Shown here: positions 1-29,376 of the stretch, piece after piece
Position numbering within the stretch: position 1 is the first letter of the stretch
Layout of the letters: each line of letters starts with the position of its first letter
Source: a virus
Reading direction: 5' to 3' (one strand)
DNA length: 36,173 nt
Virus record (IMG/VR): IMGVR_UViG_3300020281_000065
Location: 1 to 36,173 of that record
Position numbers and translations under genes: made by a program
The notes under the pieces: model-generated
The model's database searches: none
Told to the model about the DNA's origin: nothing
Seen by the model: the letters and a program-made list of their open reading frames with translations, nothing else

Positions 1-25
1 TACCGTAGAGTCCTATAATTTTCAT
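1..25 (-). CDS. Start of a gene running off the window, possibly a nucleoside monophosphate kinase
   Basis: An ATG on the minus strand at 25 overlaps the TGA of the Dam-type gene as ATGA, the junction used throughout this genome. Only eight residues are visible (MKIIGLYG). A start of this kind, a beta strand leading into a glycine-rich stretch, is common in P-loop kinases, including phage deoxynucleoside monophosphate kinases such as T4 gp1. Eight residues cannot prove it. That a gene starts here is likely; the function is a guess. Confidence 0.4.
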
Positions 26-852
26 ACTGTATAGTTAGTCAATACTAATTCTTTACGATCCATTTGTTCTAACATATATTTACCCACTGATCTCATGGTA
101 TATGTGTGATCAAATTCAGATGCATTCCAATTTACAAAACGATCACGAATTAACTGTGATGAATTATAAGATATTATATGATCTGCACATGCATCATCAC
201 AATCTGAAGCAAACTGATCATGATCAAACTTTTTATGCATAGCACCTTTTCTACCATACAGGTTTGATGATATCTCATATGGTGGATCAGAATATATGAA
301 GACTGTAGGATCATCAGTTAAGAGATCTGTATATGTACTATTAGTTATCTTCCAATGCTGAATTAATTTTCCATACTCTGCTAGTTTTTCAATTCCTCTA
401 TAAGAAAAATTAGATTCTGATGCCTGTGGAGAAAAAGAACTCGACTCAGTAAGACCAGAAAAACTACACTTATTGGTAACATAAAATGCTGCTGCTCTTT
501 CTCTATTAGTTAATCCTTTATTGTTTATATCTTCTTTTGCTTGTTCAAATAATTCTCTAGCAGTATCTCTATCTGGATGCAAGTTTTTTATTTTCCAAAC
601 TGAGTTCTGCAATGCCTCACCATCATGCTGCAACTCCATCCAAAAGTTTGCTAATGGTTCGTATAAGTCATTAACCCATACTTTAGTATCAGGAAATCTT
701 TTAGTCCATTCTAAAGCAAACGAACCACCTCCTAGAAATGGTTCGCGAAATTCTTTGTAATCAGATTTATTATAAGGATAATAACCAAATAATTTCTTAA
801 CTGCTCTAGACTTTCCACCAGGATAACGAAGGGGAGTTTTCAATTGCTTCAT
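22..852 (-). CDS. dam: D12-class adenine-N6 DNA methyltransferase (Dam-like)
   Basis: This 276-residue protein has the layout of the alpha-class (D12/Dam) adenine methyltransferases, which move a methyl group from S-adenosylmethionine to N6 of adenine in a short DNA site. The N-terminal LRYPGGKSRAVKKL (residues 8-21) is the family's motif X. REPFLGGGS (36-44) is the SAM-binding motif I. DPPY (189-192) is the catalytic motif IV. The length is normal for phage Dam proteins. Its ATG overlaps the TGA of the upstream nuclease-like gene by 4 bases, so the two are probably translationally coupled. It may protect phage DNA from host or phage cleavage. The target site cannot be read from sequence. Confidence 0.9.
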   Translation of the reverse strand: MKQLKTPLRYPGGKSRAVKKLFGYYPYNKSDYKEFREPFLGGGSFALEWTKRFPDTKVWVNDLYEPLANFWMELQHDGEALQNSVWKIKNLHPDRDTARELFEQAKEDINNKGLTNRERAAAFYVTNKCSFSGLTESSSFSPQASESNFSYRGIEKLAEYGKLIQHWKITNSTYTDLLTDDPTVFIYSDPPYEISSNLYGRKGAMHKKFDHDQFASDCDDACADHIISYNSSQLIRDRFVNWNASEFDHTYTMRSVGKYMLEQMDRKELVLTNYTV

Positions 853-1457
853 GCTGCAAGTTCAAATAAAGTAGGTCTATGAAGAAAAAATTCTGGATAA
901 TGTTGATAGACTTGTTTACTATACTCTGCTGATACTAAACATGATCTAATATCAGTTCCTTCTTGTCTTCTTCGTTGTATAGAAGCTCTATCAAGACATG
1001 GATTTTTCATCTTTGCAAATGCACCATCAGGATTAGTTGTTAATCCTATGGTTGGAACTTTAAAGATGAGAGTCCTCCAACATGTCATTAAAACATGATA
1101 GAAAACATCAGTGTTTTCTTTTGTACGAGGAGGAGAGTTATTACCAGAAGTTTGGAATCTAAAGTCAAAGATTGCTCTATGCTTTATTATACCACGCTTT
1201 TTCATTCCGTAGTCAAGACTATGTTTATATACAACTTTTTTTACTTGTGCTCTCTCTAATCCTTCTTCCTCAATTACAAGATCAATTCCTTGATCTATAT
1301 GAGGTATGGAATAGTTAATTTTGTTTCTTAGTAGATACATCTCTACTGCTTTTTCACATGCCCCACCATTAAAAGAGTGATCACAATTTTTAGCATTAAA
1401 ATCTTTTATTATTTCTCCTTCTAATAGAGGAGGCATTACTGGAACTATACGAGACAT
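849..1457 (-). CDS. Putative PD-(D/E)XK-fold nuclease, possible restriction partner of the adjacent methylase
   Basis: This 202-residue protein is not a known T4 core gene. Near the N-terminus it has GACEKAVEMYLL (residues 32-43), then a predicted strand with GIDLVIE (57-63) and AQVKKV (70-75). A helix Glu followed by Asp and then Q-x-K matches the PD-(D/E)XK arrangement, with E35, D59, Q71 and K73 as candidate residues. Q in place of E in the last motif is common among DUF4365-like and intron-associated nucleases. The start at 1457 is chosen over an ATG at 1484 because GGAG lies 9 bases ahead. The overlap with the Dam-type gene suggests a restriction-modification pair. Alternatives are a homing or host-DNA-degrading nuclease, or a nuclease-fold protein without activity. 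Confidence 0.5.
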   Translation of the reverse strand: MSRIVPVMPPLLEGEIIKDFNAKNCDHSFNGGACEKAVEMYLLRNKINYSIPHIDQGIDLVIEEEGLERAQVKKVVYKHSLDYGMKKRGIIKHRAIFDFRFQTSGNNSPPRTKENTDVFYHVLMTCWRTLIFKVPTIGLTTNPDGAFAKMKNPCLDRASIQRRRQEGTDIRSCLVSAEYSKQVYQHYPEFFLHRPTLFELAA

Positions 1458-1461
1458 AATA

Positions 1462-1671
1462 TTATTCTCCAGACATTTTAGCAACTAACTTGTCTGCTAA
1501 AGCATCAATCTCTTCATCAGTTGGAAAGACAGGATAGTCCTCAGGATCCTGTTCTATACCCATATCAGAAAGATATTCGTATCTTCTTTGTGCTTCAGAA
1601 AAACGATTCTGAAGTCTGTTTTCTGCCATTGTAAGGCACTCCATACGGAGTTCGTAAGGATTACGAGCCAT
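1462..1671 (-). CDS. Conserved small phage protein of unknown function
   Basis: A 69-residue acidic protein starting MARNPYELR, with a predicted long helix (about residues 3-37) and then DYPVFPTDEEIDALADKLV (45-63), which looks like a second short helix. It resembles, by recollection only, a short family found in many cyanomyoviruses that starts with a similar NPYELR segment. I cannot name a function. It ends 4 bases ahead of the nuclease-like gene, whose ribosome-binding site GGAG lies inside its last codons, so the two are probably co-transcribed. Confidence 0.75.
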   Translation of the reverse strand: MARNPYELRMECLTMAENRLQNRFSEAQRRYEYLSDMGIEQDPEDYPVFPTDEEIDALADKLVAKMSGE

Positions 1672-2081: not shown

Positions 2082-3026
2082 TTACTTGAACTTACATTCT
2101 ACCATAATTTCGGTAAGACATGCAAGCATGTTAATTTCCTGATCTGCTACGAATGCCATCTGATATTGATACTTAGCAATAATAAGCACAGCAGCAGCAA
2201 TACTAGGACCGTCAAGGGATGTGTATAAAGCATCGTAGATACGACGGAAGAGAAGATTAGGATCATTATCCAAATTGGAAACCGTCCACTTCCGAACCGA
2301 TGGGAAATCCTTCTCTTTGAGTTTCTTAATGAGATCATTTACTTTTACATCTGAAAATTCTGCAAGGATTGCTGAGTCTATTATACCACCAACAGAGTAT
2401 CTTTGGCATTCATTTAAGACTCTTCTCCAGTCTGGAAAGTGCTTGTTAATTAATTCAACAATAACCTTCTTATCAGATTTAATTTTTTCTACATTTAATA
2501 TTTCGTTGAGTCTTTGGAAAAATGATGCTGCAATTTTCTGCTTCTCTTTACCTTTGATACCAAACTCTACAACAGCACATCTAGAATGTAATGGTTCTAT
2601 AATTTTATTCTTGTAGTTACAAGTAAAAATAAATCTACAGTTGTTATAAAAAGACTCAATGTTTGCTCTTAATAATAACTGTACATCATGTGTTGTATTG
2701 TCTGCCTCATCAATAATGATTACCTTATGAGTGCTAGTTTGTGATAGAGAAACAGTTGATGCAAAATTCTTTGCCTGATTTCTTACAGTATCAAGAAACC
2801 TACCTTCATCAGATCCATTAATAATAATGTAGTCGCATGATAATTGTTCACAAAGTGCTCTTGCAATAGTTGTCTTACCACATCCTGCAGGACCAGCAAG
2901 TAATAAATTAGGTATCTCACCTTTATCTACAAACTTCTGAAAAGTATTCTTTATACTATCAGGAAGTATACACTCATCTATAGTCTTGGGTCTATACTTT
3001 TCGACCCAAAGAAATTCAGTTTTCAT
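2082..3026 (-). CDS. 44: Sliding clamp loader, large subunit (gp44)
   Basis: AAA+ ATPase of 314 residues, matching T4 gp44 (319). In T4, gp44 with gp62 opens the gp45 clamp and loads it at primer ends using ATP. It has Walker A GPAGCGKT (residues 45-52), Walker B IIIDEAD (103-109) and the SRC motif (148-150), whose arginine acts across the subunit interface in this family. The N-terminal WVEKYRPKTIDECILP is typical of clamp loaders. Its ATG overlaps the stop of the upstream oxygenase gene as TAATG. No recognisable gp62 follows. Confidence 0.97.
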   Translation of the reverse strand: MKTEFLWVEKYRPKTIDECILPDSIKNTFQKFVDKGEIPNLLLAGPAGCGKTTIARALCEQLSCDYIIINGSDEGRFLDTVRNQAKNFASTVSLSQTSTHKVIIIDEADNTTHDVQLLLRANIESFYNNCRFIFTCNYKNKIIEPLHSRCAVVEFGIKGKEKQKIAASFFQRLNEILNVEKIKSDKKVIVELINKHFPDWRRVLNECQRYSVGGIIDSAILAEFSDVKVNDLIKKLKEKDFPSVRKWTVSNLDNDPNLLFRRIYDALYTSLDGPSIAAAVLIIAKYQYQMAFVADQEINMLACLTEIMVECKFK

Positions 3027-3559
3027 TACAAAAGATTCAATGAAATAATAATACGATCTTGGTTACTATCATGTGGTGGTGCCATATGCAACAGACCACT
3101 TGGGAAGATTACCAAGTCACCTTCTTCAACTGCAATAGAATTAGTATCACGACTACCAGATTCTGCTGCAAACGGTGAAAAGAACAAAGTACTTTTATGT
3201 ACCTTTGGGTTTATTCTAGCATAAAATACACAAGAATAACCAACAGTGCCATGATCATGAGGAACATGATAATCTCTGCTCTTATATCTTTGACACCAAA
3301 GACCACTTACATGAGTAAATTTGTACTGAGAAATTTTTAAAAATTCATCTAGATACGGTTGTGTAATCTTTAAAAAATCTTCGGCATATGGAGGTGCTGA
3401 TTTATTAAAGTAGTCTGTGTAATCAATATGCGTGTGTTGAAAATTTGTACTGCTGTTAAAGGGAACCATAGACAATATACGGTTCCCTTCTTTTTTCCAT
3501 TCAGTTATATTAACCTTATGGATATAAACACTAAAAAGTGGTAATGACTCAATCCGCAT
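3026..3559 (-). CDS. 2OG-Fe(II) oxygenase family protein (first of four)
   Basis: A 177-residue protein with the double-stranded beta-helix signature of 2-oxoglutarate/Fe(II) dioxygenases. HVPHDHG (residues 98-104) supplies the first iron ligands. GDLVIFPSGLLHMAPP (147-162) carries the distal histidine H158. R169 in DRIIISLNLL is the likely 2-oxoglutarate contact. The W-x-x-x-Y pattern before the first motif resembles a 2OG oxygenase family common in marine phages. It lies between gp45 and gp44 and overlaps gp45's end by 11 bases. The substrate is unknown: protein, nucleotide or base hydroxylation are all possible. Confidence 0.85.
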   Translation of the reverse strand: MRIESLPLFSVYIHKVNITEWKKEGNRILSMVPFNSSTNFQHTHIDYTDYFNKSAPPYAEDFLKITQPYLDEFLKISQYKFTHVSGLWCQRYKSRDYHVPHDHGTVGYSCVFYARINPKVHKSTLFFSPFAAESGSRDTNSIAVEEGDLVIFPSGLLHMAPPHDSNQDRIIISLNLL

Positions 3560-4226
3560 ATGTTGAATCTGGTTCCAATGCTATAAAGTAATCTAAATTA
3601 TACTTGCTGTTGGTAAACTTAGCAAGATTCTTTCTAGAAATTTGAACTTCATATGAACCAGGAATCAACTTGATATTTTCAATCTTGAAATTAAATTCAA
3701 ATATACTGTCGGTCTCCCCAACAACAAGAGAAAACTCATTAGAGTTATCATTCTTCTTGTCACGAACTGTCAAAGTAATATTCTTCCCATTACCAACAGC
3801 AGCAAGATCTGGCAACTGATATATTGAAGATGCCTTAAGCAACTTCTGAAGTTGAATACTATCCAACTGGAATGATACATCAGGGTTAGTTAATTCAATA
3901 CCTTTCTCTGGTGGAGATATGATCACCTCAGGATCAGCAAAAGCAAATTTTACTTTGGTTGTTTCACCTTCACGAAGAATCATATAAGACTCATTCCTAA
4001 GATCGATGTCTGGGTCATTCATAAGATTGACACCATTTAAGAACTGTGGGAGATCATATATCCCAAATTCTTTTTCAAAGTTTTCATCAACTTCTGCCTC
4101 TGCAAGGATGTTCTTCATCACAGATATTGTACGAAGTTTAGATCCTTTTTTAACCAAAATAGATTGATTAATAGAAGAAAAGTTTTCTAAGAGGTCGATA
4201 GTTTTTTCAGATAGTTTCATATCCAT
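3549..4226 (-). CDS. 45: DNA polymerase sliding clamp (gp45)
   Basis: A 225-residue protein matching T4 gp45 (228) in length and pattern. The N-terminus MKLSEKTIDLLENFSSIN and the segment FGIYDLPQFLNGVNL (about residues 55-69) are characteristic. gp45 forms a trimeric ring that holds the polymerase on DNA; in T4 it also activates late transcription together with gp55 and gp33. AAGGA lies 10 bases ahead of ATG 4226, which favours this start over the ATG two codons later. It starts 4 bases after the DUF3310 gene and overlaps the next oxygenase gene. Confidence 0.96.
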   Translation of the reverse strand: MDMKLSEKTIDLLENFSSINQSILVKKGSKLRTISVMKNILAEAEVDENFEKEFGIYDLPQFLNGVNLMNDPDIDLRNESYMILREGETTKVKFAFADPEVIISPPEKGIELTNPDVSFQLDSIQLQKLLKASSIYQLPDLAAVGNGKNITLTVRDKKNDNSNEFSLVVGETDSIFEFNFKIENIKLIPGSYEVQISRKNLAKFTNSKYNLDYFIALEPDSTYAD

Positions 4227-4715: not shown

Positions 4716-4742
4716 TATATCACTCCTAAGTGTTTGAGTCAA
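4713..4742 (-). repeat. Duplicated gene-junction sequence, copy 1
   Basis: The minus strand reads TTGACTCAAA, six variable bases, then GGAGTGATATAATG, ending at the DUF3310 start codon. The same arrangement recurs at 5309-5339. In this copy the upstream oxygenase gene stops at the TGA inside TTGACTC. Confidence 0.85.
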
Positions 4743-5311
4743 CCATATACTTCTTTAATGTTAAAATTAAAAGAGAGAGTTTTTCTTATTTCATTATTTT
4801 TATGTGGACGAACTCCATGTAAAACATGACTAGGAAAAAAAATTATATCTCCTTTTCTAACTGATGGTTCATGAGTATCTGAATAAGATATTAAATCTTC
4901 ATACTCTTCTGAAAAGTTACAAGAATTTCTATCTATAAAAAATAATTTTCCAAAATCAATCCCATCATTTGCAAAAAATACACATGAAATATCATGTCCT
5001 GAGTGATCATGAATCTCTTGAAAATAACCTTTCTTATACAAATTTAACCAAGGGTCATACAATGTATAATCAAAATCTTTTTCTAATTTATTACCAAAGA
5101 TTTTTATACTTGGTTCTAACAGATATTCAAAATTGTTATTTTCAAGTGGTATTCTATCAACTGTACAATGTTCTCCCCATTCAAAGTAATCGTTATTTAC
5201 TTCTTTAGTGTTACATACATTTTCAATTGTAGATATTAACTCATCTGCATTAGGGGCAGGAAAAATTAAATAAAATTCAGATAAAAATAATCCTCCTCCT
5301 TCTACCAACAT
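4739..5311 (-). CDS. 2OG-Fe(II) oxygenase family protein (second)
   Basis: A 190-residue 2-oxoglutarate/Fe(II) dioxygenase-like protein. EIHDHSGHDISCVFF (residues 100-114) gives the proximal ligands H101 and H103. GDIIFFPSHVLHGVRPH (154-170) gives H165. R176 in EIRKTLSFNF is the likely co-substrate contact. It is related in plan to the genes at 3026-3559 and 5316-5957. The ATG at 5311 is preferred over one at 5338 because GGGAG lies 7 bases ahead and the longer form overlaps the previous gene. The substrate is unknown. Confidence 0.82.
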   Translation of the reverse strand: MLVEGGGLFLSEFYLIFPAPNADELISTIENVCNTKEVNNDYFEWGEHCTVDRIPLENNNFEYLLEPSIKIFGNKLEKDFDYTLYDPWLNLYKKGYFQEIHDHSGHDISCVFFANDGIDFGKLFFIDRNSCNFSEEYEDLISYSDTHEPSVRKGDIIFFPSHVLHGVRPHKNNEIRKTLSFNFNIKEVYG

Positions 5312-5339
5312 TATATCACTCCCTAATATTTGAGTCAAC
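5309..5339 (-). repeat. Duplicated gene-junction sequence, copy 2
   Basis: This is the counterpart of 4713-4742: TTGACTCAAAT, a short variable stretch, then GGGAGTGATATAATG ending at the start codon of the second oxygenase. Here the upstream gene reads through TTGACTC and stops at the TGA of AGTGATA, so its last residues (VDSNIRE) are encoded by the repeat. Confidence 0.85.
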
Positions 5340-5957
5340 TTGTATGTTGAATATATTATAACTCATAGTTATCCTAGTAACATCACTTGTAAATGGATAC
5401 ACAGTATGTTTTAACTGTGCAGGGAATACAAATATGTCACCTGTCCTAGGAACTACTTTATAACTTCCAGTATACATGTATCCAGAAGGACCGTCAAGAA
5501 ATTCTAACTGACCAGGACAAGGCATATTAGTTTTGTCCTTAACAGCATCAGATTCTTCTTCTATCTCTTTGGGAACATCAATCATTATAATAGAAGAAAG
5601 TTCACCACTGTGAACATGAACAGGATTGAATTCATTTTTCTTTTGAAAATTCATCCAAGGACCATTACCACAATTAAAAGTAAGTCTTGACATTGGTGGA
5701 TCTGGTTGTCCTAACATATCTTGATTTCTTCTTTGTAAACATCCTGCCATATACCTAAAAATGTGAGGATAAATTTCCTTCACAAATCTATCAGGATCAA
5801 GTTCACATTGTAATTGATCATCTATATTACCTGCTAAATCCCATCCAACATTTTCATTTTTAATTTTTGTTTGGACAGATGCATCAACAAGAAAATTTAA
5901 AAAGTCCTCTGATATCACTTCATGTAATATCAAAGGACCAAAAGGTTTAATTAGCAT
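5316..5957 (-). CDS. 2OG-Fe(II) oxygenase family protein (third)
   Basis: A 213-residue protein with a 2-oxoglutarate/Fe(II) dioxygenase core. NPVHVHSGELSSIIMID (residues 111-127) holds H114 and H116. GDIFVFPAQLKHTVYPF (173-189) holds H184. R195 in VTRITMSYNI is the likely 2-oxoglutarate contact. It is longer than its two neighbours, with an inserted acidic loop (about 130-150). It overlaps the end of the CobS-like gene by 11 bases, so it is in the same operon. Its C-terminal tail is written by the duplicated junction sequence. The substrate is unknown. Confidence 0.85.
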   Translation of the reverse strand: MLIKPFGPLILHEVISEDFLNFLVDASVQTKIKNENVGWDLAGNIDDQLQCELDPDRFVKEIYPHIFRYMAGCLQRRNQDMLGQPDPPMSRLTFNCGNGPWMNFQKKNEFNPVHVHSGELSSIIMIDVPKEIEEESDAVKDKTNMPCPGQLEFLDGPSGYMYTGSYKVVPRTGDIFVFPAQLKHTVYPFTSDVTRITMSYNIFNIQVDSNIRE

Positions 5958-9408: not shown

Positions 9409-9948
9409 TTACGGTATCATGCATGCACAGGTCAATCTGTAAAATGGTGTGTCTACTAGTATAGGCATAGCATCATGTAGTTCAGTAGATTTGAATGCTA
9501 TAAAATCACCAGGTTCAAAAGTAAAAGTCTCTTCTTGGATTTGTAATTCTCCACCCCAAGACTTATCCCATTGTGGAGTCATGAATCCAATGATACTCCA
9601 ACTATATTTCTTGCTACCAGTACCATCAGTATGGAAACAAGGTATGTTGCCTTTCCTTTGGGCATTGAAAACTACCGACTCTATATCATGTGTAGGTAGT
9701 TCAAAACCATATTTATCTCTGATCTTTTGTTTGACATTAACCATCGTTGCAATCATATATGCAGCAATAAATTCTGAATGTATTCCATTAGGATCTTTTG
9801 CAACAAATCTAGGATATGCTAGTATTGGATTATCTGCATTAGCATAACCACCACCAATATGCCAACATGGATTATTCATCAAATGATCATAGACCTGTTT
9901 GATCTCTGTATAATCTAAAACATTCTTAGCAATATATGCTTCTTTCAT
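9409..9948 (-). CDS. 2OG-Fe(II) oxygenase (prolyl-4-hydroxylase-like; fourth)
   Basis: A 179-residue protein with the canonical HxD...H...R set of 2-oxoglutarate/Fe(II) dioxygenases: H106 and D108 in CFHTDG, H158 in STELHDAMP, and R171 in FYRLTCAC. The segment SWSIIGFMTPQWDKSWGGELQI (116-137) is the usual strand region between the ligands. It differs from the other three oxygenases in having a true HxD. The ATG at 9948 is favoured by AAGGAG 9 bases ahead; a GTG two codons earlier is too close to that site. It overlaps the stop of a 53-residue gene as ATGA and ends before a terminator. The substrate is unknown. Confidence 0.88.
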   Translation of the reverse strand: MKEAYIAKNVLDYTEIKQVYDHLMNNPCWHIGGGYANADNPILAYPRFVAKDPNGIHSEFIAAYMIATMVNVKQKIRDKYGFELPTHDIESVVFNAQRKGNIPCFHTDGTGSKKYSWSIIGFMTPQWDKSWGGELQIQEETFTFEPGDFIAFKSTELHDAMPILVDTPFYRLTCACMIP

Positions 9949-10106
9949 GACCACAATCTCCTTAACTGACGAACATCAGTTACACCATATAATGCCTTGA
10001 CAGTTGCTTCTGCATCCTCTCTTAAATTGGATGGTGAAAAGAACTCTACTCTTGTTAATCTATTTGATTGTAACATTATTTGTGCTGTCCATTTAGTCTC
10101 TTTCAT
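9945..10106 (-). CDS. Small conserved phage protein (53 residues)
   Basis: An open frame of 53 codons fills the space between gp46 and the fourth oxygenase. It starts MKETKWTAQIMLQSNR and ends DVRQLRRLWS. It begins 2 bases after the gp46 stop and its TGA overlaps the oxygenase ATG (ATGA). The short beta-like start followed by a helix (LREDAEATVKALYG) resembles a small protein I recall next to gp46 in cyanophages. No function can be assigned. Confidence 0.7.
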   Translation of the reverse strand: MKETKWTAQIMLQSNRLTRVEFFSPSNLREDAEATVKALYGVTDVRQLRRLWS

Positions 10107-12095: not shown

Positions 12096-13147
12096 TACTC
12101 GACTTCTGAAGCTTTAGTGTATAAGTTTTTGAACATGTCTTTTGCTCTAGATTTGTCTAGATTATCTTCAGACTCATCAATATATGTATTTAATATTGAC
12201 AAGGTATTTTCCTCACTCACATCAATATCATCATCGCCATGTAACCATCCATTATTGTAATCAAAATTTTCGACGATTTTTAATTCTTCAACATTAGAAG
12301 ATTGAATCTTATCGATAAACCTTTCAAATGATTTGACATCACTTTTTTTCTGAACAATTACTTTGACTATCTTCCCTTCTAGTTCTCTACTATCAAATGT
12401 TTGATAAGGTGTATCATCATAATAAACATTATAGAACATACGATAAGGATTATTAACTGATTCTAGTTCATAAGTTTCAGTATCAAAGAAATGGAATCCT
12501 CTATCATCTTCTACATCATTCCAATACATTTCATATGGATTACCAAGATAAAATACCTGACCATCATTACTACGAGTATGATAATGTCCACTAAAGACTC
12601 TATCAAATTTTTGTAAGTGTTCTATATCTTGTCCTCTTGTTTGTTCAAATCCTTTGTATGGAGAGAAACCATTTAACTCTAGATGACCACAGGCAACTTT
12701 TGCTTTAGATGCTTTGATTTTTCTTAGCATTGATTTTTCATTTTCTTTATTCATCCAAGCGAGGAAGGCAAATTTGGTGCCTCCAATTGTATACTCAGCA
12801 AAGTCTCTGATAGGAATAATATTATTATATTCTCGTAATAATAAGTCAATAGTGTTAACTGTGTTATTATTTTTGTAGTACGCAGTGTGATTCCCAACAA
12901 TAGAGTATACAGCAATTCCCATATCTTGTAACCTATCGAAGTAATTTTCTTTAGCCCATTTGAGAGACCAGAGATCAATGTTCCTCCTATTGTCGAAAGT
13001 GTCTCCCATATCGATAAGAGTTGTGATGCCTTCTCTAGCAATCGCAGGGAAAAAAATGTCTTCATAAAATTTTTGAAAATACTGGTGGAACTCTACGCTA
13101 CCTTTTCTAGCACCGAAATGCTGATCTGTTATAATTGCTATCTTCAT
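12095..13147 (-). CDS. 47: Recombination endonuclease subunit gp47 (Mre11-like)
   Basis: A metallophosphoesterase of 350 residues, like T4 gp47 (339). Motifs run in order: TDQHFGAR (residues 7-14), IDMGDTFDNRR (about 45-55), VGNHTAY (about 84-90), CGHLELNG and FSGHYHTRS. These supply the two-metal site of Mre11-type nucleases. It forms the nuclease part of the gp46/gp47 complex. Its ATG overlaps the stop of the methyltransferase gene (ATGA). Confidence 0.97.
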   Translation of the reverse strand: MKIAIITDQHFGARKGSVEFHQYFQKFYEDIFFPAIAREGITTLIDMGDTFDNRRNIDLWSLKWAKENYFDRLQDMGIAVYSIVGNHTAYYKNNNTVNTIDLLLREYNNIIPIRDFAEYTIGGTKFAFLAWMNKENEKSMLRKIKASKAKVACGHLELNGFSPYKGFEQTRGQDIEHLQKFDRVFSGHYHTRSNDGQVFYLGNPYEMYWNDVEDDRGFHFFDTETYELESVNNPYRMFYNVYYDDTPYQTFDSRELEGKIVKVIVQKKSDVKSFERFIDKIQSSNVEELKIVENFDYNNGWLHGDDDIDVSEENTLSILNTYIDESEDNLDKSRAKDMFKNLYTKASEVE

Positions 13148-14073
13148 AAAAAACTCTCCAATGTACCTTGTCTAGAATTTACTCTGTCTTGTATTAGACT
13201 ACCATAACCCTCATGCAATTCGCAACCTATGTAGTCTCTGCCTAGTTTCTTAGCAACCATAGCAGTGGTTCCAGATCCCATGAATGGATCAAGAACAATG
13301 TCACCTTTCTCACTTCCTGCAAGAATGCATGGTTCAATTAAGTCAGGTGGGAATACAGCAAAGTGTGCTCCTTTATATGGTTTGTTAGTTATTGACCAAA
13401 CAGACCGTTTATTTTTTGTAGGGTAAGACTTGGATAACCCACTATGAGGAGCCAAGCCAGTGCCAGGATTGTGGTACTTACCTTTACTGCGATCCCTTGT
13501 TCCCCAGTCTTTTGCTGGTTCTTTAATTGCTTCATTGTCGTAAAAATACTTTTTGTTTTTGCTTAAAAGGAAAATGTATTCATGTGATTTTGTACATCTA
13601 TCCTTCATACTTTCTGGCATTGGGTTTGGTTTATGCCAAATGATATCCTGTCTAAGATACCATCCATCTGCTCTTAATGCAAATGCAAGCATCCAAGGAA
13701 TACCAATCAAATCCTTTTCTTTTAGTCCTTCTAATTTATTTGCTCTTCTATTACAATTTTCTGGTAGATCTTGATTGGTTTTACTAACAGTTTGCTTAGG
13801 TAATCCTCCAGTACCAGGTCTATAGTTATAGTATGAGTCTCCTATGTTCAACCACAGTGTACCATCATCTGTTAGAATATTTCTTACCTCTCGAAATATC
13901 TCTACTAGTTTTTGAATATACTCTTCTGGAGTTGATTCCAATCCTATTTGATCGCCCTCGCCACCATAGTCTCTTAGACCATAGTAAGGAGGAGATGTAA
14001 CACACATCCTAGGTTTCTCATCAAATTCTTTAAGGGTGTCTAAACAATCCCCAAACAAAATTAAGTCTCTCAT
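13144..14073 (-). CDS. DNA methyltransferase, SPPY type (N4-cytosine or N6-adenine)
   Basis: A 309-residue protein with the beta-class order of DNA amino-methyltransferases. It starts LILFGDCLDTLKEF, then has the catalytic CVTSPPYYGLRDYGG (about residues 24-38) and ends with DPFMGSGTTAMVAKKLGRDYIGCEL, the SAM-binding motif. S-P-P-Y is often seen in m4C enzymes but also in some m6A ones. No nuclease gene adjoins it, so it is probably a solitary enzyme. It sits between gp55 and gp47 with 4-base overlaps on both sides, an unusual place for a methylase in T4-like phages. Confidence 0.9.
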   Translation of the reverse strand: MRDLILFGDCLDTLKEFDEKPRMCVTSPPYYGLRDYGGEGDQIGLESTPEEYIQKLVEIFREVRNILTDDGTLWLNIGDSYYNYRPGTGGLPKQTVSKTNQDLPENCNRRANKLEGLKEKDLIGIPWMLAFALRADGWYLRQDIIWHKPNPMPESMKDRCTKSHEYIFLLSKNKKYFYDNEAIKEPAKDWGTRDRSKGKYHNPGTGLAPHSGLSKSYPTKNKRSVWSITNKPYKGAHFAVFPPDLIEPCILAGSEKGDIVLDPFMGSGTTAMVAKKLGRDYIGCELHEGYGSLIQDRVNSRQGTLESFL

Positions 14074-27242: not shown

Positions 27243-28912
27243 TAGTAATAATCCCACATGTAAGACATATCACCATATGTTGATGACATCTCTTTGTCTA
27301 CTGTCCACTTAGTTCCTTCATCATCGACAAACTCATCATCAGTTAGTCCATCACTAATAAATCCAAATGGTGCCATATCTTGTTCTATTTGCTCTTTCTG
27401 TTCTTCATATATTCTTTTACGAACATCATTGTCCGTCATTTCTCTGAAGTAATCTTGAGCAACTAACCATGCAAAGATAACTAAGCACATTGCTAAGTCA
27501 TCGTGGCAACCTTCTTCTGCCTCCCATGATTGCTTCTTTTGTATGAAGGTAGTCAACTCTGATATTATATCATAATCTTTAGTTTCTAGTTTATCCTCTT
27601 CAATCAACGCTTTTAAATTAGAGCATCCAGTCTTCTTAACTGCCTGTGTCATTCTAACACCCATTTGTGTTTTCTTACCAGAGAATCCAGATCCAACTAC
27701 TTGACCATTTCTACCTCTCATAGAACACATGAGAACATTCTCATATTCCAAATCATATTGAAGTATAGTTGCAACCTGTTCTCCTATATCATTTACTTCT
27801 ATCAAAGCATATGCATAATTATATGCTTTACACATATCCTCAATTATAGAAGGAAATAGCATAGGTTTTATTTCATTGTTCTTATATCTTGCTACTGTCC
27901 TATATGGGAACTGAGTAATATCAAATACCACAAAGGCAGAATAGTCATGATCTATACCCCTAGCAGTATCAACAGTTATGATATAGTTGTGATCTTTTTG
28001 TGGTGCTTCGTATACAACTAATCCTTTACCATTATCCTGTATAGGATCTTCAAATACTAATGTTCTTAATTTAGAAACTGCTATAAGCGTGTCAACAGAT
28101 CCTAAGAACTCACACTCAAACTCAACTTTAAACTGTTGCTCTGATGTGTTTGAAATAGTTTGTGCTTTCCAACTAGCATCTCTACCTGGCACTTCTGACC
28201 AGTGAACTTCAGTTGGTGTGTATTCATTCTTTCCTCGTTGAGCATTATGCCAATACCTATAAAAATGGTTCATTCCGTGAGGAGTAGAAACCATTATGAC
28301 TTTGGTTGTTTTACCAGAAGTGATAGTAGGATATACTGAGCTGAAGAATGCGTCAGCAATATGATTAGGCACAAAGGCAAACTCATCCAAAAATAGAATG
28401 TTGAAAGACATACCCCTAACTGCAGATGCAGAGGTAGATGCTGCAAGTATTTTAGATCCATTTTCTAACTCCAATGATCCTTTGTTCCAAGATATAATAC
28501 CCTGTTGCATCCATTTAGGTAAATTCTCATATGCAGTTTGTAATCTACCTAATAGTTCTCTTGCAGTTGCTGCTTTGTTTGCCAGAATACCAATGTTTAC
28601 ACTATCATTGAATACTGCATAATGTAGTAGATAAGAAACAGCAGTTGTAGATTTACCAGTCTGCCGAGGCATTTTGCATATATTGAATCTACTCTCATGA
28701 AAATTTCTAATTAATTTCTCCTGAAAAGGATACATCTTAAATTTAACAAGACCTTCATCTAGTGATACTATCTTTACATAATTTTTCGCAAAGTAAATTG
28801 GATCTCGTTTACACTTGATCCATTCTTCTACTTGTTTTTTTGTAAATTGTATCTCAGTATTTGCCTTTTTTAAATTAGGATTACCTAGATAAATTTCTTC
28901 TTTTGCTACCAT
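27242..28912 (-). CDS. 17: Large terminase subunit gp17
   Basis: A 556-residue packaging motor, slightly shorter than T4 gp17 (610). The ATPase domain has Walker A PRQTGKST (residues 82-89) and Walker B FLDEFAFVP. The nuclease domain has ITVDTARGIDHDYSAFVV (an RNase H-like core with its first Asp) and CHDDLAMCLVIFAW near the C-terminus. It cuts the concatemer and pumps DNA into the prohead through gp20. It overlaps the nuclease gene by 1 base. Confidence 0.97.
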   Translation of the reverse strand: MVAKEEIYLGNPNLKKANTEIQFTKKQVEEWIKCKRDPIYFAKNYVKIVSLDEGLVKFKMYPFQEKLIRNFHESRFNICKMPRQTGKSTTAVSYLLHYAVFNDSVNIGILANKAATARELLGRLQTAYENLPKWMQQGIISWNKGSLELENGSKILAASTSASAVRGMSFNILFLDEFAFVPNHIADAFFSSVYPTITSGKTTKVIMVSTPHGMNHFYRYWHNAQRGKNEYTPTEVHWSEVPGRDASWKAQTISNTSEQQFKVEFECEFLGSVDTLIAVSKLRTLVFEDPIQDNGKGLVVYEAPQKDHNYIITVDTARGIDHDYSAFVVFDITQFPYRTVARYKNNEIKPMLFPSIIEDMCKAYNYAYALIEVNDIGEQVATILQYDLEYENVLMCSMRGRNGQVVGSGFSGKKTQMGVRMTQAVKKTGCSNLKALIEEDKLETKDYDIISELTTFIQKKQSWEAEEGCHDDLAMCLVIFAWLVAQDYFREMTDNDVRKRIYEEQKEQIEQDMAPFGFISDGLTDDEFVDDEGTKWTVDKEMSSTYGDMSYMWDYY

Positions 28913-29376
28913 TAACCTGCGTCTAGCGTACCAAATGATCTACGAATTTCTCTGAGTTCTTCAAAGTCTTTCTTCTTTGTACCACCATCATATCCCCAAG
29001 CGTACCCTTCATCAATCATTTGTTCATTGAGAGACACTTCTGCGTCCCCGATGTAACACCACCCCAGTAACCGTCCGTACTTCCCAACGCCCCCCACAAG
29101 CTCAGTACGAATGAAAAGCTGATCATCACCAGCAAGTGTGCTCTCCAATTTTTCTTTAAGCCAGTTGGTAGCATCGATTCCTAACTCCTTTTCTTCCAAG
29201 TTTCTTGTTCTTTTCTCTGGCGTATCAACTCCTGCAATTCTAACTCTCTCTTTCTTGTATAGATCAAACCCAAGATCAATGGTGACATCAATAGTATCCC
29301 CGTCAAGAACACGATTAATCTCCGTCACTCGAAAGTTGTAACAACTCTTCCTGCTCGGTGGGGTCATTGTTCCCAT
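28912..29376 (-). CDS. Staphylococcal-nuclease-like (thermonuclease) protein
   Basis: A 154-residue SNase-fold protein. VLDGDTIDV (residues 23-31), RVRIAGVDTPE (44-54) and GKYGRLLG (98-105) are the three catalytic landmarks of Ca-dependent nucleases of this family, with R45 or R47, D51, E54 and R102 as candidate active-site residues. No signal peptide is seen, so it probably acts in the cell, perhaps on host DNA or RNA. AAGGAG lies 7 bases ahead of ATG 29376. It overlaps the membrane-protein gene upstream by 62 bases, in another frame. Confidence 0.88.
   Translation of the reverse strand: MGTMTPPSRKSCYNFRVTEINRVLDGDTIDVTIDLGFDLYKKERVRIAGVDTPEKRTRNLEEKELGIDATNWLKEKLESTLAGDDQLFIRTELVGGVGKYGRLLGWCYIGDAEVSLNEQMIDEGYAWGYDGGTKKKDFEELREIRRSFGTLDAG

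What the first reader, a model, noticed from the sequence alone, without database searches (positions are those of the whole stretch)
22..1457. Possible phage-borne restriction-modification pair
A Dam-type methyltransferase gene overlaps by ATGA a gene whose product has a PD-(D/E)XK-like set (E35, D59, Q71-x-K73). This gene is not part of the T4 core. Lytic T4-like phages often carry solitary methylases, but a coupled nuclease would be unusual: it could destroy host or competitor DNA while phage DNA is methylated.
Basis: partly seen in the sequence, partly recalled or inferred. Interest (0 to 1): 0.65.

Follow-up and report, generated by a model that had tools for sequence, protein, structure and literature searches.

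The report
Clamp-linked phage nuclease, not restriction-modification pair
Beside a common phage DNA-methylating gene sits a real but uncharacterised DNA-cutting enzyme that many ocean cyanobacterial viruses carry in the gene cluster for their DNA-copying 'sliding clamp', usually with a tail that looks built to grip that clamp, so it is probably a mobile nuclease working on viral DNA during copying and not half of a restriction-modification pair.

Summary
The two genes, the ATGA overlap and residues E35, D59, Q71 and K73 are as described. The 202-aa protein is very probably a PD-(D/E)XK nuclease. Two AlphaFold models match the homing endonuclease I-Ssp6803I best (Z 10.7 and 11.3; Holliday-junction resolvases follow at about 7). 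D59, Q71 and K73 never vary in 58 aligned homologues (50 distinct), and E35 varies once. The methylase is a near-universal, usually solitary gene of T4-like cyanophages. The nuclease comes and goes beside it (at least 6 changes on the methylase tree). It touches the methylase in only 21 of 40 loci, and five homologous contigs lack the methylase. What it stays with is the gp45/gp44/gp62 clamp and clamp-loader cluster, where it occupies at least four different slots. Most homologues end in a clamp-binding-like peptide (for example QQTLCEFF; 41 of 50 match a broad pattern, 1.7 expected), similar to the C-termini of the phages' own polymerases. The window's copy has a degenerate version (PTLFEL). 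Best reading: a mobile accessory nuclease, probably tethered to the phage clamp, that cuts replicating or recombining phage DNA. Activity, target and clamp binding are untested.

The parts
849..1457 (-). 202-aa PD-(D/E)XK nuclease gene ('R'); stop codon at 849-851
   Evidence: predicted fold; homologues
1353..1355 (-). codon of E35, first active-site acid on the core helix
   Evidence: 57 of 58 aligned homologues, T in L031
1281..1283 (-). codon of D59, metal-binding acid
   Evidence: 58 of 58
1239..1247 (-). codons of Q71-x-K73, catalytic strand
   Evidence: Q71 and K73 58 of 58
1422..1433 (-). family-specific N-terminal motif P9-P10-L11-L12, followed by invariant E15; function unknown
858..872 (-). 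C-terminal TLFEL (residues 196-200), degenerate form of the clamp-binding-like tail of the family
   Evidence: family statistics; the window's copy does not match the broad pattern
22..852 (-). D12-class adenine DNA methyltransferase, near-universal and usually solitary in T4-like cyanophages; neighbour, not shown to be a partner
   Evidence: PF02086 6.8e-28; distribution
1462..1671 (-). 69-aa ORF between R and the 105-aa ORF; homologue next to R in L030, missing in L007, L010 and L012
1759..2076 (-). 105-aa cluster ORF (phrog_2000, unknown function)
2082..3026 (-). gp44 clamp-loader subunit, the most constant neighbour of the nuclease family
   Evidence: about 80% identical to annotated clamp loader; positions
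3549..4226 (-). gp45 sliding clamp, the proposed tether
   Evidence: homology and gene order with annotated gp45 of P-RSM1 and MbCM1

Best explanation
The 202-aa protein is an accessory PD-(D/E)XK endonuclease of T4-like cyanophages, with a core closest to the homing endonuclease I-Ssp6803I. It is encoded inside the gp45-gp44-gp62 sliding-clamp and clamp-loader cluster. In most of the family its C-terminal tail is a clamp-binding-like peptide, so the enzyme is probably tethered to the phage's own gp45 clamp and cuts DNA that carries this clamp: replicating, recombining or late-transcribed phage DNA, not host DNA. Two modes are open. The slightly favoured one is homing or competition: it cuts the cluster of co-infecting phages that lack it, and recombination then copies it in. 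The other is a junction- or mismatch-type nuclease like clamp-activated NucS or PCNA-bound Hjc. The methylase next door is an older, independent gene. Shown here: the distribution, the changing positions, the conservation of the active site and of the tail. Inferred: catalysis, clamp binding, target and purpose.
For: Fold: two models of distant members, pLDDT 76.9 and 79.0; I-Ssp6803I at Z 10.7 over 128 residues and Z 11.3 over 134, next hit about 7; Foldseek E 2.6e-5; weak profile hits to phrog_5018 (7.7e-9) and PDDEXK_5/DUF4365. Active site: D59, Q71, K73 58/58, E35 57/58. Selection: dN/dS 0.09-0.57, below 1. Cluster linkage: 47 of 52 distinct loci lie by gp44 or the methylase, with at least 7 position changes on the gp44 tree. 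Tail: 41 of 50 distinct sequences match [STN][LIVM]xx[FLM][FLMIV] in the last 22 residues against 1.7 in shuffles; 22 of 50 match Q-x-x-[LIVM]-x-x-[FY][FY] against 0.4; a narrower form occurs nowhere inside any of the proteins. Polymerase gp43 of the same phages ends ASLEFLFA or ANLEMFFS. T4 clamp ligands gp43, gp55 and gp33 bind through similar hydrophobic, acidic C-termini (PMC2988020). Mobility: at least 6 presence changes on the methylase tree, empty site in L136, R 49% but methylase 90% identical between P-RSM1 and L037.
Against: No activity, target or clamp contact was tested. The window's own tail (RPTLFELAA) misses the broad pattern, and L007/L010 end at KPTLF, so tethering may be weak or lost in this clade, although KPTLF resembles the NucS clamp peptide [E/K]-[L/Y]-[T/R]-L-F (PMC8228993). 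Three homologues lie outside the cluster (L031, L230, L261). The metaG-MbCM1 copy has an in-frame stop. Flank comparison of one R+/R- trio gave only a faint hint of co-conversion, so homing is not demonstrated.
Confidence: 0.55

Rival explanations
1. Plain freestanding homing endonuclease without functional clamp tethering: it cuts a site in gp44 or a neighbouring gene of phages that lack it and is copied in by recombination. The tail has another role.
For: Closest fold is a homing endonuclease; sporadic presence and shifting slots close to gp44; precise absence in L136; cyanophages carry other freestanding homing endonucleases such as F-CphI (PMC6083498).
Against: The C-terminal clamp-like peptide is conserved far above chance. 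No homing site or strong co-conversion was seen.
Confidence: 0.2
2. Clamp-activated repair or junction nuclease, like archaeal/actinobacterial NucS (EndoMS) or PCNA-bound Hjc, serving the phage's own replication or recombination.
For: Hjc structures are the next best fold family (Z about 7). NucS, also a clamp-stimulated nuclease, carries a C-terminal clamp peptide. Encoded among clamp genes.
Against: A housekeeping role fits poorly with absence from most relatives, repeated gain or loss and fast divergence.
Confidence: 0.17
3. Restriction-modification pair as first proposed: the nuclease cuts unmethylated host or competitor DNA while the neighbouring methylase protects phage DNA.
For: Nuclease fold and active site are real; adjacency and ATGA overlap in the window clade and 21 of 40 loci. 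Chloroviruses show that lytic viruses can use such pairs against host DNA (PMC7019647).
Against: Methylase usually solitary; nuclease often distant from it or without it; methylase 90% but nuclease 49% identical between the same two phages; a phage-clamp tether would steer it to phage DNA. Chlorovirus R and M genes are always adjacent.
Confidence: 0.06
4. Methylation-directed strand-nicking system: the clamp-tethered nuclease uses methylase marks to tell new from old strands, as MutH does with Dam.
For: Clamp-like tail plus a neighbouring adenine methylase.
Against: Same non-linkage to the methylase as above; MutH does not appear in the fold-hit lists, which is no exclusion.
Confidence: 0.02

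Closest known systems
I-Ssp6803I (PDB 2OST), PD-(D/E)XK homing endonuclease, PF11645
   Same: Best fold match by a clear margin over about 130 residues; spacing and kind of the E/D/Q-x-K residues agree (I-Ssp6803I residues recalled, not aligned here).
   Different: Only 12-17% identity and below the Pfam cut-off; not inside an intron; extra N-terminal PPLL-xx-E motif and C-terminal clamp-like tail; homing not shown.
NucS/EndoMS clamp-activated mismatch endonuclease (PMC8228993)
   Same: Endonuclease with a short clamp-binding peptide at the very C-terminus.
   Different: [quoted passage not shown] no NucS among the listed fold hits; here the gene is mobile and accessory.
Archaeal Hjc Holliday-junction resolvases
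   Same: Second-best fold family, similar size.
   Different: Z about 7 only; junction cleavage untested.
Chlorovirus restriction-modification pairs (PMC7019647)
   Same: Lytic virus with a nuclease gene beside an adenine methylase gene.
   Different: There the two genes are always adjacent; here they are not.
F-CphI and other freestanding homing endonucleases of T4-like phages (PMC6083498)
   Same: Sporadic accessory nuclease gene beside core phage genes.
   Different: Different catalytic motif (Endo VII type, per the abstract); only the abstract was read.

Membership tests
PD-(D/E)XK nuclease superfamily | helix plus mixed beta-sheet core | tested here: met
   two AF2 models with Foldseek and VIA hits only to this fold at the top
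PD-(D/E)XK nuclease superfamily | conserved E / D / (D,E,Q)-x-K active site | tested here: met
   D59, Q71, K73 58/58; E35 57/58
PD-(D/E)XK nuclease superfamily | metal-dependent DNA cleavage | not testable with these tools
   needs purified protein
Type II restriction-modification system | endonuclease and methylase genes travel together | tested here: not met
   methylase mostly alone; nuclease not adjacent in 19 of 40 loci and without methylase in L226, L227, L031, L230, L261
Type II restriction-modification system | methylation blocks cleavage at a shared site | not testable with these tools
   needs assay
I-Ssp6803I-type (PDDEXK_5, PF11645) homing endonucleases | same fold as I-Ssp6803I | tested here: met
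   Z 10.7 and 11.3, well above the next hits
I-Ssp6803I-type (PDDEXK_5, PF11645) homing endonucleases | Pfam gathering score reached | tested here: not met
   best E 0.12, below cut-off
I-Ssp6803I-type (PDDEXK_5, PF11645) homing endonucleases | promotes its own copying into R-less alleles | tested here: inconclusive
   sporadic presence and empty site seen; flank signal faint
Sliding-clamp ligands (PIP / T4 gp43-type C-terminus) | C-terminal hydrophobic clamp-binding peptide | tested here: met
   for the family: 41/50 broad and 22/50 canonical against 1.7 and 0.4 expected; degenerate in the window's copy
Sliding-clamp ligands (PIP / T4 gp43-type C-terminus) | physical binding to gp45 | not testable with these tools
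D12-class adenine methyltransferase | PF02086 domain above cut-off | tested here: met
   98.5 bits against 22
Dam (GATC) methylase | GATC specificity | not tested
   only PDB sequence relative at E<=0.01 was 7m6b; GATC count in the window is near expectation

The most novel reading that the evidence does not exclude
A clamp-guided mobile endonuclease: a homing or competition nuclease that lives among the clamp genes and uses the phage's sliding clamp to find and cut replicating DNA of co-infecting phages.
Probability: 0.3. Interest if true: 0.75.

Novelty: new variant of a known kind. Interest (0 to 1): 0.5.

Why it matters
If true, it adds a widespread, unannotated nuclease family to marine T4-like cyanophages and joins a homing-endonuclease-like catalytic core to a clamp-binding tail. 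I found no description of that combination in the papers searched. It would show how a mobile nuclease can be steered to replicating phage DNA, and it removes a tempting but wrong restriction-modification annotation (one GenBank copy is even labelled 'Dam').

Tried and rejected
Direct sequence search of the nuclease family against PDB chains: no hit. Pfam and PADLOC for the window protein: nothing significant. Genome-wide bacterial scan with the early alignment: no relative; plasmids: none. Endonuclease VII and PDDEXK_5 family searches rang in no control genome, so those absences are not evidence. Methylase adjacency as pairing evidence: rejected after about 90% of cyanophage records with gp44 proved to have a methylase and. 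The ATGA overlap as evidence of coupling: rejected, common in this phage. GATC avoidance: none.

Full report
Observation. The downstream gene is a D12-class adenine methyltransferase (PF02086). The window is a fragment of a T4-like phage: major head protein, portal, tail sheath, terminase, helicase and gp46/47-like SbcCD subunits were found. Four-base overlaps occur elsewhere in the window, so the overlap alone is not evidence of a functional pair.

What the 202-aa protein is. Sequence libraries alone are nearly silent, but homologues fetched from viral contigs and two cyanophage genomes (P-RSM1 and metaG-MbCM1) gave alignments deep enough for structure prediction. Models of the window protein and of the distant homologue in L155 both match I-Ssp6803I, a PD-(D/E)XK homing endonuclease, at Z 10.7 and 11.3, with archaeal Hjc at about 7 and restriction enzymes at 4-7. 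Foldseek agrees. D59, Q71 and K73 are invariant in 58 aligned rows (50 distinct sequences); E35 is replaced once, in L031. dN/dS is below 1 throughout. A working nuclease is therefore very likely, although no activity has been shown.

Is it half of a restriction-modification pair? The methylase is old and common: about 413 of 461 cyanophage-named records with gp44 have it, and 72 of the 80 methylase loci nearest to the window's lack the nuclease (some flanks are short). On a tree of 100 methylases the nuclease's presence changes at least 6 times. L136, with a methylase 89% identical to that of P-RSM1, runs from methylase straight into gp62 with no nuclease. In 40 distinct loci where both gp44 and the methylase are visible, the nuclease touches the methylase in 21, touches gp44 in 15, and touches neither in 8 (some touch both; coordinates are stop-to-stop ORFs). 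In L226/L227 it sits between gp44 and gp62 with no methylase there, and L031, L230 and L261 lie on contigs with no D12 methylase found. Between P-RSM1 and L037 the methylase is 90% identical but the nuclease only 49%, odd for two enzymes that must share a target site.

What it is linked to. Wherever gene order can be read, the nuclease is almost always inside the gp45-(speD)-gp44-gp62-regA cluster that makes the sliding clamp and its loader: directly upstream of gp44, directly downstream of it, between gp44 and the methylase, or between the methylase and gp62. This needs at least 7 position changes on the gp44 tree. Independently, the C-terminus carries a conserved hydrophobic peptide after a linker of variable length: EQQTLCEFFDYE, EQTTLDNFFDD, QQTVMEFFS, QQSTLTEFL. 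A broad pattern fits 41 of 50 distinct sequences (1.7 in shuffles), the canonical PCNA-interacting form fits 22 (0.4), and a narrower T4-like form fits 29 (0.5) and never occurs elsewhere in these proteins. The DNA polymerases of the same phages end ASLEFLFA or ANLEMFFS, and in T4 the C-termini of gp43, gp55 and gp33 are the clamp-binding parts (PMC2988020). The window's own copy ends PTLFELAA, a degenerate version, and two close relatives end at PTLF.

Mechanism. The simplest joint reading is a nuclease brought to phage DNA by the phage clamp. Its coming and going, shifting slots, fast divergence and homing-endonuclease-like core favour a mobile, homing or competition role slightly over a repair or junction role like NucS or Hjc. 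A clamp tether would point it at phage, not host, DNA. Homing itself was not shown: one comparison of flanks gave only a faint signal.

Limits. Most homologues are metagenome contigs, and presence or absence was read within limited flanks. The metaG-MbCM1 copy has an internal stop, in a genome that by its name is itself metagenome-derived. No cleavage, binding or specificity can be tested with these tools.

Noticed in passing
window 13144-14073 (-): Second DNA methyltransferase (PF01555, E 3.8e-58) beside the late sigma factor gp55; its C-terminus RQGTLESFL also looks like a clamp-binding tail.
   Followed up: partly
L006 7405-9111 and the same place in L005, L007-L010 and L012, just beyond the window's low end: A carbamoyltransferase-like gene (HDSGATLFVDG motif; name by inspection) lies between the methylase and gp62 in the window's close relatives; it might modify DNA.
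   Followed up: no
L028 3254-3883: A second small PD-(D/E)XK protein (PF11645, E 2.1e-7, above cut-off) next to an HNH-like ORF, directly upstream of the nuclease gene: looks like a homing endonuclease cluster.
   Followed up: partly
L001 4923-5585 (metaG-MbCM1): The homologue has an in-frame stop after residue 159 and is annotated in GenBank as a Dam methylase although it is the nuclease.
   Followed up: yes
window 3026-3559, 4739-5311, 5316-5957 and 9409-9954 (-): Four 2OG-Fe(II) oxygenase-like genes near the clamp cluster.
   Followed up: partly
window 28912-29376 (-): SNase-type nuclease (PF00565, E 3.5e-11; phrog_452) overlapping the terminase gene end.
   Followed up: no
L103 279-707: 142-aa ORF beside a gp45-gp44-methylase cluster, weak hit to the nuclease profile and to phrog_5018: perhaps another small nuclease.
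   Followed up: no
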